Part shown: piece by piece, positions 39,924 through 50,558 of the stretch
Layout: the number at the start of each line of letters is the position of its first letter
Position numbering within the stretch: the first letter of the stretch is position 1
DNA from: Pareuzebyella sediminis
Lineage (GTDB): Bacteria; Bacteroidota; Bacteroidia; Flavobacteriales; Flavobacteriaceae
Direction: 5' to 3'
Assembly (NCBI RefSeq): GCF_008367235.1
Contig: NZ_VTZS01000001.1
Coordinates: 558,001 to 622,000, forward strand
Length of the DNA stretch: 64,000 nucleotides
Position numbers and translations under genes: made by a program
The notes under the pieces: generated by a model
The model's input: only the letters and a program-made list of their open reading frames with translations
Database searches by the model: none
What the model was told of the DNA's origin: nothing

Positions 39924-41459
39924 ATGCTCACAAAGGTTTTTGGAAGTGCCGTCTTCGGCGTGGAGGCCACCACGATTACTGTCGAAGTCAATGTCGATAC
40001 CGGAGTGGGGTATCATTTAGTGGGGTTGCCCGATAATGCCATAAAGGAGAGTAATTACCGCATTGCAGCCGCTCTAAAGAACAATGGTTATCGCATTCCT
40101 GGAAAAAAAATCACCCTTAACCTAGCTCCGGCTGATTTGCGCAAAGAAGGTTCCGCTTATGATTTGACTTTGGCCATTGGTATTTTGACCGCATCCCAGC
40201 AAATCAAATCAGAAAATCTTGAAAAATATATCATCATGGGAGAACTTTCCCTTGATGGATCGGTGCAACCCATCAAAGGGGCACTTCCCATTGCCATAAA
40301 AGCTCAAGAAGAGGGCTTCGACGGCTTTATTTTACCCTTGGAAAATGCCAAGGAAGCAGCCATTGTTTCAGATTTAAAGGTTTATGGTGTCGAAAATATC
40401 AGTGAGGTCATCGATTTCTTCGATAAGGATAGAAATCTTGAACGGACTGTTATCGATACCCGTGCAGAGTTCTATAAAAGCCTAGACTTTCCGGAATATG
40501 ATTTCTCCGATGTGAAAGGGCAAGAGAGTATTAAGCGTTGTATGGAAATCGCCGCGGCAGGTGGTCATAATATTATATTGATCGGTCCTCCTGGAGCAGG
40601 TAAAACCATGTTGGCTAAACGATTGCCTTCGATTTTACCCCCCATGACCTTGCATGAGGCGTTAGAGACTACCAAAATCCATAGCGTTGTCGGCAAAATA
40701 AAGAACATGGGGTTAATGAGCCAAAGGCCGTTTCGAAGTCCCCATCACACGATTTCCGACGTCGCCTTGGTCGGTGGGGGAGCTTATCCGCAGCCGGGAG
40801 AAATATCGTTGTCGCACAACGGAGTATTGTTTTTAGATGAACTCCCAGAATTCAAGCGTGGCGTACTCGAGGTGATGCGCCAGCCGTTGGAAGACCGTGA
40901 AGTTACTATTTCAAGGGCCCGTTTTACGGTAACCTACCCCAGTAGTTTTATGCTGGTGGCGAGTATGAACCCGAGTCCAGGAGGGTATTTTAACGACCCC
41001 GATGCGCCGGTGACCTCTTCTCCCGCGGAAATGCAAAGGTATTTAGGCAAGATTTCAGGACCGTTACTAGATCGTATCGATATACATATTGAAGTAACGC
41101 CCGTTCCTTTTGAAAAACTCTCCGACGACCGAAAAGGAGAGGGCAGTGTGGCCATTCGTAAGCGCGTGACCGCAGCTCGAGAACTTCAGACCCATCGCTT
41201 TGAAGCATTGGACAAGGTGCATTATAATGCCCAGATGAATACCAAGCAGATCCGCGAGTTCTGTAGGTTGGACGATGCGTCGAAGGAACTTCTCAAAAAT
41301 GCCATGGAACGACTGAACCTTTCCGCGCGGGCCTACGACCGTATCTTAAAGGTAGCGCGAACCATTGCCGATTTAGATAATAGCCAGGAAGTAAACGGTA
41401 ATCATATTAGTGAAGCAATCCAATACCGTAGTTTGGACAGGGAAGGGTGGTTGGGTTGA
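39924..41459 (+). CDS. comM: YifB/ComM family Mg chelatase-like AAA+ ATPase
   Basis: A 511-residue protein of the ComM/YifB family, a hexameric helicase that promotes branch migration of incoming DNA during natural transformation. The N-terminal lon-like domain (GVEATTITVEVNVDTGVGYH, VGLPDNAIKESNYRIAAALK) is followed by Walker A GPPGAGKTMLAKRLPSILPP, Walker [21 protein letters not shown] and the C-terminal Mg_chelatase lid. It is full length and intact. From about 40760 to its stop, its sequence recurs at 43796-44501 as a damaged copy (see repeats). Confidence 0.95.
   Translation: MLTKVFGSAVFGVEATTITVEVNVDTGVGYHLVGLPDNAIKESNYRIAAALKNNGYRIPGKKITLNLAPADLRKEGSAYDLTLAIGILTASQQIKSENLEKYIIMGELSLDGSVQPIKGALPIAIKAQEEGFDGFILPLENAKEAAIVSDLKVYGVENISEVIDFFDKDRNLERTVIDTRAEFYKSLDFPEYDFSDVKGQESIKRCMEIAAAGGHNIILIGPPGAGKTMLAKRLPSILPPMTLHEALETTKIHSVVGKIKNMGLMSQRPFRSPHHTISDVALVGGGAYPQPGEISLSHNGVLFLDELPEFKRGVLEVMRQPLEDREVTISRARFTVTYPSSFMLVASMNPSPGGYFNDPDAPVTSSPAEMQRYLGKISGPLLDRIDIHIEVTPVPFEKLSDDRKGEGSVAIRKRVTAARELQTHRFEALDKVHYNAQMNTKQIREFCRLDDASKELLKNAMERLNLSARAYDRILKVARTIADLDNSQEVNGNHISEAIQYRSLDREGWLG
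40757..41459 (+). repeat. Direct repeat, copy 1: 3' end of intact comM
   Basis: This stretch matches 43796-44501. From about 40795 onward I count 11 differences, including two one-base deletions in copy 2, over roughly 670 bases. The first ~40 bases are much more divergent but still encode TIxDVALVGxGAYPQ in both. The similarity ends exactly at the comM stop codon. Confidence 0.92.
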
Positions 41460-43786: not shown

Positions 43787-44501
43787 TTGTATACTATTAC
43801 AGATGTGGCCCTTGTGGGTGAGGGAGCCTATCCACAGCCGGGAGAAATATCGTTGTCGCACAACGGAGTATTGTTTTTAGATGAACTCCCCGAATTCAAG
43901 CGTGGCGTACTCGAGGTGATGCGCCAGCCTTGGACGACCGTGAAGTCACTATTTCAAGGGCCCGTTTTACGGTACCTACCCCAGTAGTTTTATGCTGGTG
44001 GCGAGTATGAACCCGAGTCCAGGAGGGTATTTCAACGACCCCGATGCGCCGGTGACCTCTTCTCCCGCGGAAATGCAAAGGTATTTAGGCAAGATTTCAG
44101 GACCGCTACTAGATTGTATCGATATTCATATTGAAGTAACGCCCGTTCCTTTTGAAAAACTCTCCGACGACCGAAAAGGAGAGGGCAGTGTGGCCATTCG
44201 TAAGCGCGTGACCGCAGCTCGAGAACTTCAGACCCATCGCTTTGAAGCATTGGACAAGGTGCATTATAATGCCCAGATGAATACCAAGCAGATCCGCGAG
44301 TTCTGTAGGTTGGACGATGCGTCTAAGGAACTTCTCAAAAATGCCATGGAACGACTGAACCTTTCCGCGCGGGCCTACAACCGTATCTTAAAGGTAGCGC
44401 GAACCATTGCCGATTTAGATAATAGCCAGGAAGTAAACGGTAATCATATTAGTGAAGCAATCCAATACCGTAGTTTGGACAGGGAAGGGTGGTTGGGTTG
44501 A
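43787..44501 (+). pseudogene. Frameshifted comM 3' fragment
   Basis: A remnant corresponding to about residues 273-511 of ComM, lacking the N-terminal domain and Walker A. Two one-base deletions break the frame: one in the MRQPLEDRE codons near 43930 (a lost G) and one near 43976 (a lost A in GGTAACC). After the second the original comM frame is restored from MLVASMNPSPGGYFNDP onward and remains open to the normal stop. It cannot make a working ATPase. The intact comM upstream makes it redundant. Confidence 0.93.
43796..44501 (+). repeat. Direct repeat, copy 2: displaced 3' end of comM
   Basis: Partner of 40757-41459, about 3.04 kb away stop to stop. The sequences 5' of the homology and after the stop codon are unrelated to copy 1. 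Recombination between the two copies would delete or circularise 41460-44501. Confidence 0.92.
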
Positions 44502-46080: not shown

Positions 46081-48447
46081 ATGAGTTTTACGAAGAGGAC
46101 TATTTATGCTATTTACGCGAGTCAAGATATCGATGTGTTGCGGCGGCTTTTGCTCCGTTTACACCCCTTGAAGAAAGACTTCAACCTAACTATCTGGAGC
46201 GACGATGCGATTAATCCGGGTCAGCGATGGCGACCGGAACATGAATCACGGCTAAATCATTGTGATATATTCCTGCTTTTATTGAGTAATAGCTTTATGT
46301 ATTCCGATCTTATCAGACAAGAGGAATTTCAGGTGATCGTTGATCGTTATAAAAACGATGGAACCACCATTATACCCATTATAATAGATAATTGTCCTTG
46401 GGATCTTGAATTTAGCTTTGGCGACTACAATTTCAACTTTAAGGAACTACAAGTGTTTCCAAAAAATCAAAAGCCATTAGGTGACCGTAATACAGAAGAT
46501 GTAGTATTTGGAGAAATTACCAATTTTTTGAGGGGCTTGATTTCACCACCAGATAAAACTAATGCTGTTGAAGAAAACCGGAGTAGAAGCACAGCTGGGC
46601 AAATAGCGATAGATTTCTTTGAAGAAGAAAGGAGAAACGATGAGGCCGAAAAAGGGGAAAAAAGCAAACGGGAAGTTAAAGCAAAAGTAAAAGATATTAG
46701 GGATTATGCTTCTATGCCTCCTCTGAAAGAAATCGAAGCGAAAGAGACGGTCATAATTGAGAGTCGGCCGAGACATAAAGTGGAGGTCCAACAACGGATA
46801 AAAAAGGAAAAAGAGCTCAAAGGAAAAGCTAAAAGAAATACAAAAATCGAAGTAGAGGCCAAACTCCATAGAAGGCCTATAGTTCCAAATCGGGAAAACG
46901 AAAGTGCAATAACCAGAAAATTAGAAAATATACGTTCCGGTATACGTCTTACCCAAAAAGGATCTATTCAAGATAAAGAGGTGGGAAAAGGTCAATTCAC
47001 GCAAGAAAAAGGTATTAGAAAAAATCGCCTCGAAAGATATAACTATCAATTTAAGACTACGCCACCGGTCAAGGTCAAAAGTGTAGGCAAAAAAGAAAGC
47101 CCAGACAACGGCAATGCAAGTACAACATCGGTGGTATATGCAAAAGAAAGGGGCGGAATGCAAAAGTCCGGTAGCGCAAACGACCTAGAAAAGCGATTGG
47201 GAGAAGTAATTACGGTGCAGGAAGTAAGCCTTAGAAAAAAACGACTTTCAGGACATAATTATCAATTTAAGACTACGCAACCGGTCAAGACCAAAAGAGT
47301 AGCGCCCCAAGAAGAAATGGGGGTCGACGAGAGACAAGTAAAGCCCCAGCCCTTTGTAGAGGTAAAGAAGCAGATCAAAATATCGAAATCTGAAAGCGAC
47401 GCTACACTGAAGGAGAAGTTGGCAGGGTTTTTCGAGAGGTTCAGAAAAACTTTGAAAGATCACATCACCGTGGCTTACGACCGTACCTCAAAATCTTGGA
47501 GTGGGTTCGTTCAACGCCTCAAAGAGGCAAAAGAGAAAAAAGCTTTACGTGATAAAAAAAGTTTTTTTTCCGGACTCGTAGTTAAAATCAAAGGAACCTC
47601 GGCGGATTCAATTGCGATGCTGAAAAAGAGTTTCGCCACAGCATACCATCGGACCTCCAAACCGGTGAGCATAATCGGTCGACGCATTAAAGAAGCAAAA
47701 GAGAAAAGAAATATAAATAAAGAAAGTGGTTTTTTCTCCGGATTCATGGTTGAATGGAGAAAAACTTTAGAAAATTCCCTCACCACTCTGAAAGAAGGTT
47801 CTGCCCTAGCTTATGATAAAACGGTTGAATCCTTAAGTAGTTTTCTTAAGCGCATTAGGGAAGCTAAAGGGGAAGGCACCATACATACGAAAGGAATTTA
47901 TGCCGGGTTCGCCATCGCAAGTCTAGTTATTTGCGGACTATTGATTTACGTTTTTACCGGAAATGCTGAAAAGCAATCCACTATTGTCCCGGAAGTAGAG
48001 ACTACGGGAGTACCTCCGGCCAGTGAGCCCACGATTGATGATATTTCTGAACGTCAGCCGCCAGCCATCTCTGAATTAGGTATCGGAGATACTTATTTGG
48101 GAGGTATGGTTTTCGCGATAGATTCATCCAAGGAATCGGGTAAAATTGCCTACACCGAAGATATGGGCCCCATGCCGTGGAAAGATGCGATTAAAATTCA
48201 CGAGCAATTGGGCGAGGGATGGAGATTGCCCACACTAATGGAACTGGAGATCATGTACCATACCATTGGGCAAGGCGCAACCAACGATGGTCGATTCGCC
48301 GATAAATTGTATTGGAGCGCAACGCCCTACGACAAGCATCAGGCTAGACTACTGCGTTTCACGGATGGAAACACCTCATATCATTACAACAATGCACTTG
48401 AAAAACGAAAATTTCTGGTACGCGCCATTCGGGATTTTGGCCGATAA
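46081..48447 (+). CDS. TIR domain receptor-like protein: TIR, basic linker, 56-residue repeats, TM helix, Lcl/DUF1566 domain
   Basis: A 788-residue protein with unusual domain order. Residues 7-150 are a TIR domain (RTIYAIYASQDIDVLRRLL; TIWSDDAINPGQRW; FLLLLSNSFMYSDLIRQEEF, with Glu81/82 at the position of the NADase glutamate of enzymatic TIRs). Residues 160-445 are a long charged linker with a duplicated NYQFKTT-PVK segment (about 320 and 392). Residues 465-613 hold three helical repeats at 56-residue spacing. One membrane helix (about 605-626) follows, then a Pro-rich spacer and an Lcl/DUF1566 C-type-lectin-like domain (about 667-785; GWRLPTLMELEIMY, YWSATPYD). The likely topology puts TIR in the cytosol and Lcl outside. 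The ATG at 46081 is the only early start. Function unknown; immunity or envelope sensing is inference. Confidence 0.85.
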   Translation: MSFTKRTIYAIYASQDIDVLRRLLLRLHPLKKDFNLTIWSDDAINPGQRWRPEHESRLNHCDIFLLLLSNSFMYSDLIRQEEFQVIVDRYKNDGTTIIPIIIDNCPWDLEFSFGDYNFNFKELQVFPKNQKPLGDRNTEDVVFGEITNFLRGLISPPDKTNAVEENRSRSTAGQIAIDFFEEERRNDEAEKGEKSKREVKAKVKDIRDYASMPPLKEIEAKETVIIESRPRHKVEVQQRIKKEKELKGKAKRNTKIEVEAKLHRRPIVPNRENESAITRKLENIRSGIRLTQKGSIQDKEVGKGQFTQEKGIRKNRLERYNYQFKTTPPVKVKSVGKKESPDNGNASTTSVVYAKERGGMQKSGSANDLEKRLGEVITVQEVSLRKKRLSGHNYQFKTTQPVKTKRVAPQEEMGVDERQVKPQPFVEVKKQIKISKSESDATLKEKLAGFFERFRKTLKDHITVAYDRTSKSWSGFVQRLKEAKEKKALRDKKSFFSGLVVKIKGTSADSIAMLKKSFATAYHRTSKPVSIIGRRIKEAKEKRNINKESGFFSGFMVEWRKTLENSLTTLKEGSALAYDKTVESLSSFLKRIREAKGEGTIHTKGIYAGFAIASLVICGLLIYVFTGNAEKQSTIVPEVETTGVPPASEPTIDDISERQPPAISELGIGDTYLGGMVFAIDSSKESGKIAYTEDMGPMPWKDAIKIHEQLGEGWRLPTLMELEIMYHTIGQGATNDGRFADKLYWSATPYDKHQARLLRFTDGNTSYHYNNALEKRKFLVRAIRDFGR
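47473..47919 (+). repeat. Three 56-residue protein repeats in the TIR protein
   Basis: The units begin at residues 465, 521 and 577: AYDRTSKSWSGFVQRLKEAK, AYHRTSKPVSIIGRRIKEAK and AYDKTVESLSSFLKRIREAK. The first two end in FFSGL/FFSGF, while the third runs into the membrane helix (IYAGFAIASLVICG). Spacing is exactly 168 bases, but the DNA copies have diverged. Confidence 0.88.
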
Positions 48448-49094: not shown

Positions 49095-50558
49095 CTACTC
49101 TTTAATAAAGTTCTTGTAATGTTCGTAGCGTTCAAAGATTTGATTCACGTAATTGTAGGGTTCTATACCATTGACGTAACCATAATTGACAGATGGATGG
49201 TTGAAATTCTGTGGATAGCTTAGAGCCAACATCATTTCATTGACATTGTCGTCCCATATGTCGGGATCTAGATCTTTTAGCTCTGCGAGTTTGCGGGCGT
49301 CCATGATATGATAATAACCGCTGTTATATGCACCCATGGTGAATTTGATGCGCTGTACGCTATCGGTTACTTCCTCAAAGTTCTTGTAGATACTTTTTAA
49401 GTATTTTGAACCTGCGTTGATATTATCAATAGGTTCGGAGACATTCGCAACCCCTAGCTCTTCAGCGGTTTGGGGCATCAATTGCATTAAGCCCGAAGCC
49501 CCCGTCCATGCATTCGCTTCGCTGTTAAAACTTGACTCTTGAAATATCAGGGAGGCTAATAAACGCCAATCCCAACCCAGCGTTTTCGCATTTCGTTTGA
49601 TGATGGAATCGTATTGACTGATCTGATTGTTGGTTAGACTGTAAAACTCGCTTTTAACCCGACGATTAAAATATCTTTTATTCTGAAAGTACTTGTTGTA
49701 GATGACGTAATAGTCGGTTTTCTTTTTTTGATTTTCGATCCATTCGTTAATCTTTTCCAACAGTACCTGCGAGTCTTTATGAACGGCCCAAGCAATACGT
49801 TGGGAAAAGCTAACAGGTACTGAGGCATCCAGAATCGGATAAAAGGAAGCATTGATGTTGGCCAAGTTTTTATCCGCTATTGTGTATTCGATTTTTTTTT
49901 CGGCTACCATTTTGATTATTTCTGCCGTGGATACCTTCCCCAAAATGGTATCTATATGAATGGTGCCACCTATTTCCTTAGAGAGGTTCTCCAATCTCTC
50001 AAAATAGGAAGAATTAAACCGTACAGAGACGGTATCTCCAATAAGTTGAATAGGATCTTGAATGATACTTTCCCTTATTTTATCTAAGGTCAACTGGCGC
50101 CAATTCTCCGGTTTTCGTTGTACCAAAACCTGATTGGTCAGATACAAATAATCGGTAAAGGCCACATTCTTTTTTCGCTCAGAGGTGATAGCCAAGCCAT
50201 AGGCTACCAAATCGATATCACCTTCGGTGAGTTGTTTCAATAAAGAATTCAGGTCTTCGGCGACGATGAGTTCAAGTTCAAGATTGAAACTGTCTGCAAG
50301 TCGCTGTAAAAGCTCATATTCGTAGCCCATAGGCCTCCCTTTATAAAGAAAATAACTGGTACTACTATAGGCAATGAGTGCTCTCAATTTACCATCTTCA
50401 AGTATATCTTCATAATCCCTTATCCTTATGTTGGCGCCATCGTCACTGTCATTATTGATGGTGGAATTGGAATTACAACCCGTAACTAATAAGATAAAGC
50501 AAAAACTGAAGACAAAAAATCGTATATGCATATAAGTATGGTATAATAAGTTTTTCAT
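49095..50558 (-). CDS. mltF: Membrane-bound lytic murein transglycosylase F-like lipoprotein
   Basis: A 487-residue envelope protein. The N-terminus has a lipobox (FILLVTGCNSN, Cys near residue 28). An amino-acid-binding SBP_bac_3 domain (about 50-290; LRALIAYSSTSYFLYKGRPM, DIDLVAYGLAITSERKK) precedes a lysozyme-like SLT domain (about 320-450). The catalytic Glu is in SLIFQESSFNSEANAWTGAS and the fold motif is GLMQLMPQTAEELG. It cleaves peptidoglycan to 1,6-anhydromuropeptides. Either the ATG at 50558 or one nine codons in (MHIRFFVFS, 50531) may be used; the second gives the more usual lipoprotein signal. Confidence 0.92.
   Translation of the reverse strand: MKNLLYHTYMHIRFFVFSFCFILLVTGCNSNSTINNDSDDGANIRIRDYEDILEDGKLRALIAYSSTSYFLYKGRPMGYEYELLQRLADSFNLELELIVAEDLNSLLKQLTEGDIDLVAYGLAITSERKKNVAFTDYLYLTNQVLVQRKPENWRQLTLDKIRESIIQDPIQLIGDTVSVRFNSSYFERLENLSKEIGGTIHIDTILGKVSTAEIIKMVAEKKIEYTIADKNLANINASFYPILDASVPVSFSQRIAWAVHKDSQVLLEKINEWIENQKKKTDYYVIYNKYFQNKRYFNRRVKSEFYSLTNNQISQYDSIIKRNAKTLGWDWRLLASLIFQESSFNSEANAWTGASGLMQLMPQTAEELGVANVSEPIDNINAGSKYLKSIYKNFEEVTDSVQRIKFTMGAYNSGYYHIMDARKLAELKDLDPDIWDDNVNEMMLALSYPQNFNHPSVNYGYVNGIEPYNYVNQIFERYEHYKNFIKE

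What the first reader, a model, noticed from the sequence alone, without database searches (positions are those of the whole stretch)
46081..48447. Receptor-like protein joining an intracellular TIR domain to an external Lcl/DUF1566 domain
Seen: N-terminal TIR (7-150, with Glu81/82 at the NADase position), one membrane helix (605-626), and a C-terminal Lcl/DUF1566 C-type-lectin-like domain (667-785) in a single chain. Known: many bacterial TIR proteins are soluble NADases of antiphage systems (Thoeris, CBASS-TIR, TIR-SAVED); a one-pass layout with an outside sensor domain is like an inverted eukaryotic TLR and is not a layout I can name in bacteria. Inference: it could sense envelope damage, phage adsorption or a surface ligand and trigger NAD-linked signalling or self-assembly of TIR domains.
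Basis: partly seen in the sequence, partly recalled or inferred. Interest (0 to 1): 0.75.

Follow-up and report, generated by a model that had tools for sequence, protein, structure and literature searches.

The report
Membrane TIR receptor with lectin-like sensor
A bacterium and some of its relatives carry a single-gene membrane protein that joins an immune-type TIR domain inside the cell to a lectin-like domain predicted to lie outside the inner membrane, looking like a sensor wired straight to a possible NAD-cutting switch.

Summary
The gene is real. Window 46081-48447 encodes TIR, a long charged linker, one membrane helix, then an Lcl/DUF1566 domain. The layout is conserved: 15 of 397 sampled genomes of the same family (taken as Flavobacteriaceae) carry it in one frame, and two named relatives share it. 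The candidate catalytic Glu is E82 (invariant in 18 of 18 TIR-bearing members), not E81. Positive-inside charge gives N-in/C-out in 18 of 18, so the Lcl domain should be periplasmic, not outside the cell. The Lcl half is the most conserved part (65% mean identity; TIR 49%, linker 31%). The gene stands alone, often near comM, with little sign of a defence neighbourhood. The most novel by-product lies elsewhere: in green sulfur bacteria a separate TIR-Lcl fusion, with and without a membrane helix, is diversified by a diversity-generating retroelement (15-24 of 17-26 mismatches at template adenines in four targets). The window's protein is a non-diversified counterpart. Best reading: a membrane receptor whose periplasmic Lcl domain controls a cytosolic TIR NADase or signal synthase. 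Anatomy well supported; ligand, NADase activity and defence role inferred; structure models weak.

The parts
46081..48447 (+). TIR-linker-TM-Lcl gene, 788 aa
   Evidence: ORF; Pfam; homologues
46099..46545 (+). TIR domain (residues 7-155)
   Evidence: TIR_2 E 1.5e-8; PADLOC ThsB E 6.9e-14; TIR-like fold matches of a pLDDT 59 model
46324..46326 (+). codon of E82, candidate catalytic Glu
   Evidence: invariant in 18 of 18 TIR-bearing members; E81 is not
46600..46626 (+). short conserved motif after the TIR (residues 174-182, Q-hydrophobic-x-I-x-F-x-E-E), role unknown
   Evidence: alignments A1 (3 rows) and A4 (19 rows; Q174 invariant there)
46558..47892 (+). long charged, partly repetitive linker (residues 160-604)
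   Evidence: K+R+D+E 37% here, 37-53% over the 18 rows with a helix
47893..47961 (+). membrane helix (residues 605-627), N-in/C-out
   Evidence: hydropathy and flanking K/R 5 against 1
48064..48438 (+). Lcl_C/DUF1566 domain, C-type-lectin-like by profile, predicted periplasmic (residues 662-786)
   Evidence: Pfam E 5.9e-7, below cut-off; profile match to 8q4e E 0.0039; 65% mean pairwise identity in 17 full members
48304..48408 (+). stretch (residues 742-776) aligned with the retroelement-variable positions of green sulfur TIR-Lcl proteins; not diversified in this family
   Evidence: 16 equivalent columns, mean entropy 0.88 bits against 0.96 in the other 111; 4 of the 16 invariant
39924..41459 (+). 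comM (Mg-chelatase-like ATPase), upstream landmark shared with 8 of 18 other loci
43793..44501 (+). partial copy of the 3' end of comM (711 aligned columns, 97% identity)
49095..50558 (-). MltF-like lytic transglycosylase, convergent neighbour, also next to the relative L009

Best explanation
A one-gene, single-pass inner-membrane receptor. Shown by sequence: an N-terminal TIR with an invariant Glu82; a long charged linker of very variable length; one membrane helix with N-in/C-out charge; a strongly conserved C-terminal Lcl/DUF1566 domain. Inferred: the periplasmic Lcl domain (trimeric, if it behaves like its solved relative) recognises a conserved ligand such as an envelope glycan or protein, or its loss; a change in its oligomer brings the TIRs together; the TIRs then cleave NAD+ to shut the cell down or make a signal, most likely as protection against phage or envelope attack.
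For: Domains; layout in one frame in 15 of 397 genomes of the family; topology 18 of 18; E82, S69 and W107 invariant in 18 of 18; the only PADLOC match is ThsB, a Thoeris TIR. Solved-structure profile matches of the TIR include Cat1, a CRISPR-associated TIR, E 0.0013. Lcl matches the trimeric C-type-lectin-like 8q4e, E 0.0039 (passages of PMC11162425). That the Lcl half is a recognition module is supported by analogy: in green sulfur bacteria the same kind of domain joined to a TIR is hypermutated by a retroelement near its C-terminus. One member, L067, lacks almost exactly the TIR, in frame, but keeps linker, helix and Lcl, so the two halves are separable.
Against: No activity data. The AlphaFold models are weak (TIR pLDDT 59; Lcl pLDDT 44, unusable); of the 10 PDB matches of the TIR model at E <= 0.001, 7 are TIR-containing and 3 are NagZ-type enzymes. 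No defence-island context was seen. The Lcl domain is conserved rather than variable, and the frequent comM neighbourhood (9 of 19 loci) looks inherited, not mobile. In green sulfur bacteria 6 of 14 TIR-Lcl ORFs have no membrane helix, so an Lcl domain can work in the cytosol. The L067 loss can also mean that the TIR is dispensable.
Confidence: 0.5

Rival explanations
1. The same membrane receptor layout, but with an ordinary physiological role (envelope or glycan status signalling) rather than defence.
For: Lcl is the most conserved part; 9 of 19 loci lie near comM, spread over the TIR tree, as expected of vertical inheritance; no convincing defence neighbours in the window; a lytic transglycosylase is adjacent in the window and in L009, though not in the other loci compared.
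Against: Patchy presence (15 of 397); TIR domains in bacteria are often immune effectors (recalled; also passages of PMC10907252 and PMC8195603); one TIR-less allele.
Confidence: 0.3
2. The TIR acts only as an assembly or adaptor module, without NAD chemistry.
For: Some TIRs work as scaffolds (recalled); the TIR is diverged, 49% mean identity within the family, and its Pfam scores are modest.
Against: The Glu at the catalytic position is invariant in 18 of 18; profile matches are to immune TIRs.
Confidence: 0.15
3. The hydrophobic segment does not place Lcl in the periplasm; the Lcl domain senses a cytosolic ligand.
For: 6 of 14 green sulfur TIR-Lcl ORFs have no helix, and the 8 with one show no clear positive-inside bias.
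Against: One helix and K/R asymmetry in all 18 family rows that reach it; a different TIR clade.
Confidence: 0.07
4. The window protein is itself a target of a diversity-generating retroelement.
For: DUF1566 is a common target domain (passages of PMC4159848, PMC6642488); TIR-Lcl proteins are targets in green sulfur bacteria.
Against: No second copy of the Lcl DNA in the genome; the one RT matched in the genome by PF00078 is retron-like; the equivalent positions are as conserved as the rest of Lcl; the green sulfur RT finds only 1 weak match (25% identity) in 16 genomes of or near the family.
Confidence: 0.01

Closest known systems
DGR variable proteins with C-type-lectin sensor and TIR effector (PMC10907252, PMC7517822; passages seen)
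   Same: A TIR (or another effector) joined to a C-terminal C-type-lectin-fold recognition domain; proposed antigen sensors.
   Different: Here no retroelement was found, the lectin-like domain is conserved, it is anchored by one helix after a long linker, and no NTPase, vWA or CHAT partner domain is in the chain.
Lcl of Legionella, DUF1566/PF07603 (PMC11162425, passages seen; PDB 8q4e)
   Same: C-terminal Lcl domain: C-type-lectin-like, trimeric in the solved protein, glycan binding there.
   Different: Lcl is a collagen-like surface adhesin; here the domain is the predicted periplasmic end of a TIR protein.
Thoeris ThsB
   Same: The only PADLOC match is to its TIR (E 6.9e-14).
   Different: No ThsA found (two searches whose controls were silent); membrane helix and Lcl domain; single gene.
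Eukaryotic Toll-like receptors (recalled)
   Same: Ectodomain, one helix and cytosolic TIR in one chain.
   Different: Order reversed (TIR N-terminal), lectin-like rather than LRR ectodomain, no shared descent shown.
Green sulfur TIR-Lcl proteins found here (L111, L116, L120, L113)
   Same: TIR N-terminal, Lcl C-terminal, some with one helix and a charged linker.
   Different: A different TIR clade, helix before rather than after the linker, hypermutated Lcl, some without a helix.

Membership tests
Bacterial TIR domain | Significant TIR profile match | tested here: met
   TIR_2 and TIR above Pfam cut-offs; 17 of 19 members match TIR_2 at E <= 0.01
TIR NADase | Conserved catalytic Glu | tested here: met
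   E82 in 18 of 18; that this is the catalytic position rests on recalled motifs of known TIRs
TIR NADase | NAD+ cleavage | not testable with these tools
   needs an enzyme assay
Lcl_C/DUF1566 | Profile match over the curated cut-off | tested here: inconclusive
   30.2 bits against 34.9 for this protein; E <= 0.01 in 18 of 19 members, bit scores of the others not shown; 8q4e E 0.0039
Thoeris | ThsA partner gene | tested here: inconclusive
   no PADLOC ThsA match among 10 window neighbours; PF18185 and PF20016 not found in the genome, but the controls were silent too
DGR variable protein | Template repeat and DGR reverse transcriptase | tested here: not met
   no second copy of the Lcl DNA; the only RT matched is retron-like
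Green sulfur TIR-Lcl as DGR targets | Adenine-specific TR-VR mismatches and RT with the SQ motif | tested here: met
   4 TIR-Lcl targets with 15-24 of 17-26 mismatches at TR adenines, none at VR adenines; IGNLTSQ in 4 of 4 RTs, three of which lie in a locus with a TIR-Lcl gene (motif meaning recalled)
Toll-like receptor | Extracellular LRR domain N-terminal to the TIR | tested here: not met
   TIR is N-terminal and the far domain is Lcl

The most novel reading that the evidence does not exclude
Bacteroidota in the broad sense (green sulfur bacteria included) evolved, at least twice, Toll-like receptors with a lectin-type sensor joined to a TIR: a fixed-ligand, membrane-spanning form in Flavobacteriaceae and an evolvable form in green sulfur bacteria whose sensor is rewritten by a retroelement, in effect bacterial receptors with germline and somatic-like repertoires.
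Probability: 0.3. Interest if true: 0.85.

Novelty: new variant of a known kind. Interest (0 to 1): 0.58.

Why it matters
Most bacterial TIR defences that I can name are triggered inside the cell (recalled). A conserved TIR protein with a predicted periplasmic lectin-like domain would mean that bacteria can couple an extracytoplasmic cue directly to NAD chemistry in one chain. The paired comparison (conserved Lcl in Flavobacteriaceae, retroelement-mutated Lcl in green sulfur bacteria) makes the role of the Lcl half directly testable.

Tried and rejected
Defence-island hypothesis: 10 window neighbours (the comM fragment was not among them) and 101 of 103 listed neighbours of 18 relatives (two long ones, of L060 and L009, left out to shorten the job). 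Gene calls were mechanical ORFs. PADLOC matched 13 families, each in 1-3 proteins. Csa3/CasR (4 of the 13 families) is one small regulator of L062. LeoA/LeoBC and DndA/SspA are probably housekeeping GTPases and cysteine desulfurases (inference, not checked). The matches to Pycsar TIR, TIR effector and PycC models were not traced: 20 of the 101 were rescanned singly without finding them, and my own TIR profile found no TIR in those loci other than the family itself. So one defence neighbour may exist.

DGR for the window gene: rejected. Structure of Lcl: model unusable, so no fold search was run on it; 'C-type-lectin-like' rests on profile matches alone. Homologues outside the family: a class-wide search of 395 genomes gave, besides the own one, two Lcl hits in short or broken frames (L125, L126) that I did not examine for a TIR. 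Flavobacterial promoter motif (recalled) upstream: none found by pattern.

Script faults: twelve minus-strand loci were read on the wrong strand; nine were redone, L022-L024 were not used. In one search the frame picker gave usable frames for 17 of 29 loci (6 wrong short frames, 6 none); 20 stretches around such hits were then fetched and called anew. One search ended with an error after the topology counts; the green sulfur part was redone.

Limits of the green sulfur part: the phylum search used the Lcl domain of L009 at E <= 1e-8 and found 28 of 395 genomes; I fetched 20 stretches. The local TIR and Lcl profiles were built partly from these same proteins. For TR-VR pairs I examined 15 of the 20 stretches; of the 14 TIR-Lcl ORFs (Pfam-checked for 4) a template was found for 4; genomes were not searched for distant templates. 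One of the 14 (L107_7) has only a partial TIR match and was not in the tree.

Full report
OBSERVATION. The ORF at 46081-48447 codes for 788 aa. Pfam finds TIR_2 (E 1.5e-8), TIR (1.2e-5) and Lcl_C (5.9e-7, under its own cut-off) in this one protein. NCBIfam adds only sub-threshold matches, among them FxsC TIR-like and Lcl adhesin.

A REAL FAMILY. Of 397 genomes of the same family sampled, 15 (own included) have the TIR half and the Lcl half in one open frame. One more (G142) is cut by a contig end after the TIR; another of the same genus (G341) lacks the TIR, in frame, and keeps start, linker, helix and Lcl. Pfam on 19 members: Lcl_C in 18, TIR_2 in 17. A sample of 99 relatives held no second full copy, and a class-wide sample of 395 showed none besides the own one at E <= 1e-15 apart from two short or broken Lcl frames. 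The family is thus patchy and seems narrow. All 18 TIRs form one clade (100/99) in a 49-row tree.

ANATOMY. Among 17 full members the mean pairwise identity is 0.49 for TIR, 0.31 for the linker, 0.31 for the helix, 0.23 just after it, and 0.65 for Lcl. In complete members the distance from residue 160 to the helix runs from 125 to 707 residues; charged residues make up 37-53% of it over the 18 rows with a helix. Eleven TIR positions are invariant in 18 rows, among them S69, E82, F83 and W107; position 81 is not conserved. Forty Lcl positions are invariant in 18 rows. A helix follows the linker in all 18 rows that reach it, with more K/R on its N side in 18 of 18 and no strongly hydrophobic N-terminus. 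By the positive-inside rule the TIR is cytosolic and Lcl periplasmic.

STRUCTURE. Of the TIR model's 10 PDB matches at E <= 0.001, 7 are TIR-containing (RPS4/RRS1, SPARTA, MAL, TIR-STING, Roq1) and 3 are NagZ-type enzymes. By sequence profile the TIR finds Cat1 (E 0.0013) and a plant TIR (0.011), and Lcl finds 8q4e, the Legionella Lcl C-terminal domain (0.0039; the next matches, mostly T-cell receptor chains at E 0.2 and above, are taken as chance). I saw passages of that structure paper: the domain is a trimer and resembles C-type-lectin-like domains, and its conserved DUF1566 residues lie largely in the core (PMC11162425). Conservation of Lcl is therefore not by itself proof of a conserved ligand.

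CONTEXT. The gene stands alone: the next likely gene ends 264 bases upstream, and an MltF-like lytic transglycosylase converges downstream. In 9 of 19 loci comM lies upstream on the same strand, at gaps from 107 to 4622 bases. These loci are spread over the tree while a crown clade lacks comM, which suggests an old position beside comM that was later lost (inference). Of 10 window neighbours only ComM gave PADLOC matches. On 101 neighbours of relatives PADLOC gave 13 families, each in 1-3 proteins (details and the untraced Pycsar-like matches under Tried and rejected). This is not a defence island by these data, but no background rate was measured.

THE GREEN SULFUR COUNTERPART. A phylum-wide search with the Lcl domain of L009 hit 28 of 395 genomes. 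Twenty-six of them belong to one family (f32), and 13 of 13 f32 genomes tested have a match to the Fenna-Matthews-Olson protein (two of them partial), so I take them as green sulfur bacteria. In 20 fetched stretches a local profile found 14 ORFs with TIR and Lcl, 8 with a helix between and 6 without. Pfam confirmed both domains in 4 of 4 checked. Four of the stretches hold a 419-aa reverse transcriptase with the IGNLTSQ motif (that SQ marks DGR enzymes is recalled; RVT_1 E 4.7e-21 for the one scanned); three of these four also hold a TIR-Lcl gene. For four TIR-Lcl genes a template repeat was found: L111_9 23 mismatches, 21 at template A; L120_13 22 and 20; L116_10 26 and 24; L113_3 17 and 15 (no RT seen on that short contig); none at variable-region A. 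In the three ungapped pairs nearly all changed residues fall on AAN codons of the template. Binomial P against an assumed 40% A is 6e-5 to 3e-8. Other Lcl proteins carry pentapeptide repeats (L111_5 and L120_17, same template) or, in another stretch without a template seen, a PP2C domain. Thirteen of the 14 TIRs were put in the tree; they group together (89/97, with one ORF inside whose Lcl part my profile did not find) apart from the window family, with long branches, so the fusion probably arose at least twice.

WINDOW VERSUS COUNTERPART. The Lcl DNA of the window has no second copy in its genome. The one reverse transcriptase matched resembles retron enzymes. The green sulfur enzyme has one weak match (25% identity) in 16 genomes of or near the family. 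At the 16 columns aligned with the hypermutated positions of three green sulfur targets, the Flavobacteriaceae family has mean entropy 0.88 bits against 0.96 in the other 111 columns; 4 of the 16 are invariant and a few vary. The alignment across the two groups is approximate. So the same kind of domain is conserved in one lineage and deliberately varied in the other.

MECHANISM. Shown: the parts, order, predicted orientation and conservation. Inferred: Lcl binds a conserved periplasmic ligand; its trimer (if formed) arranges three TIRs; the TIRs become active on assembly, as known TIR enzymes do (recalled); the output is NAD+ loss or a nucleotide signal. A defence purpose is plausible from the TIR and from the hypermutated counterpart, but conservation of Lcl and the chromosomal setting fit an envelope-status sensor nearly as well.

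OTHER TIRS HERE. The own genome has 9 TIR_2 matches, 8 above the cut-off. Four of the 8 have predicted membrane helices: this gene; L002 (three helices then TIR); L004 (CHASE2-like, below cut-off, then TIR); L006 (TIR, one helix, small C-terminal part). Membrane TIR proteins are thus not rare in this organism.

LITERATURE. No held paper has both 'TIR domain' and 'DUF1566'. A search for diversity-generating retroelement, TIR domain and Chlorobi gave one paper, PMC10907252, whose passages report a DGR target with CHAT and TIR domains and TIR effectors near lectin-fold targets, and Chlorobi among bacteria with several RTs. PMC7517822 passages name TIR-like domains in cyanobacterial variable proteins. 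PMC7159879 and PMC8195603 passages describe FGS (C-type-lectin-fold) and TIR domains in conflict systems. DUF1566 is a common DGR target domain (passages of PMC4159848 and PMC6642488). In PMC8144416 the word TIR does not occur in the held text. 'CHASE2' and 'TIR domain' co-occur in one held paper, PMC8195603, where CHASE2 is named with a caspase-type protein. Other searches were read as listings. Subscription papers are mostly not held, so absence from print is not shown.

Noticed in passing
L111 6691-6842 and 8890-9771; L116 9146-10576 and 12483-12616; L120 8649-10034 and 11942-12092; L113 531-681 and 2013-3398: Green sulfur bacteria carry TIR-Lcl proteins, with or without a membrane helix, whose Lcl C-terminus is a target of a diversity-generating retroelement.
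   Followed up: partly
window 43793-44501 and 39924-41459; L059: The 3' 711 bp of comM is duplicated (97% identity) after two unknown coil-helix genes; a relative has a 709-bp copy (85%) with nearly the same breakpoint and a different gene between, suggesting that the comM end is an insertion or recombination hotspot.
   Followed up: partly
L067 7998-9137 (minus): A family member that lacks almost exactly the TIR domain, in frame, but keeps the start, linker, helix and Lcl.
   Followed up: no
L004, L006, L002 (own genome): Further membrane TIR proteins: CHASE2-like then TIR, TIR-helix-small C-terminal part, three helices then TIR.
   Followed up: partly
L121 13751-15304; L120 12664-14094; L111 4650-6173: The Lcl domain is also joined to PP2C phosphatase and pentapeptide-repeat proteins in green sulfur bacteria, so it behaves as a general C-terminal module.
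   Followed up: partly
own genome C14:121435-121974 (L055): A single reverse transcriptase resembling retron St85 and TIR-retron enzymes, a possible retron defence system.
   Followed up: no
window 46600-46626: A short conserved motif right after the TIR (Q174 to E182) in the family, role unknown.
   Followed up: no
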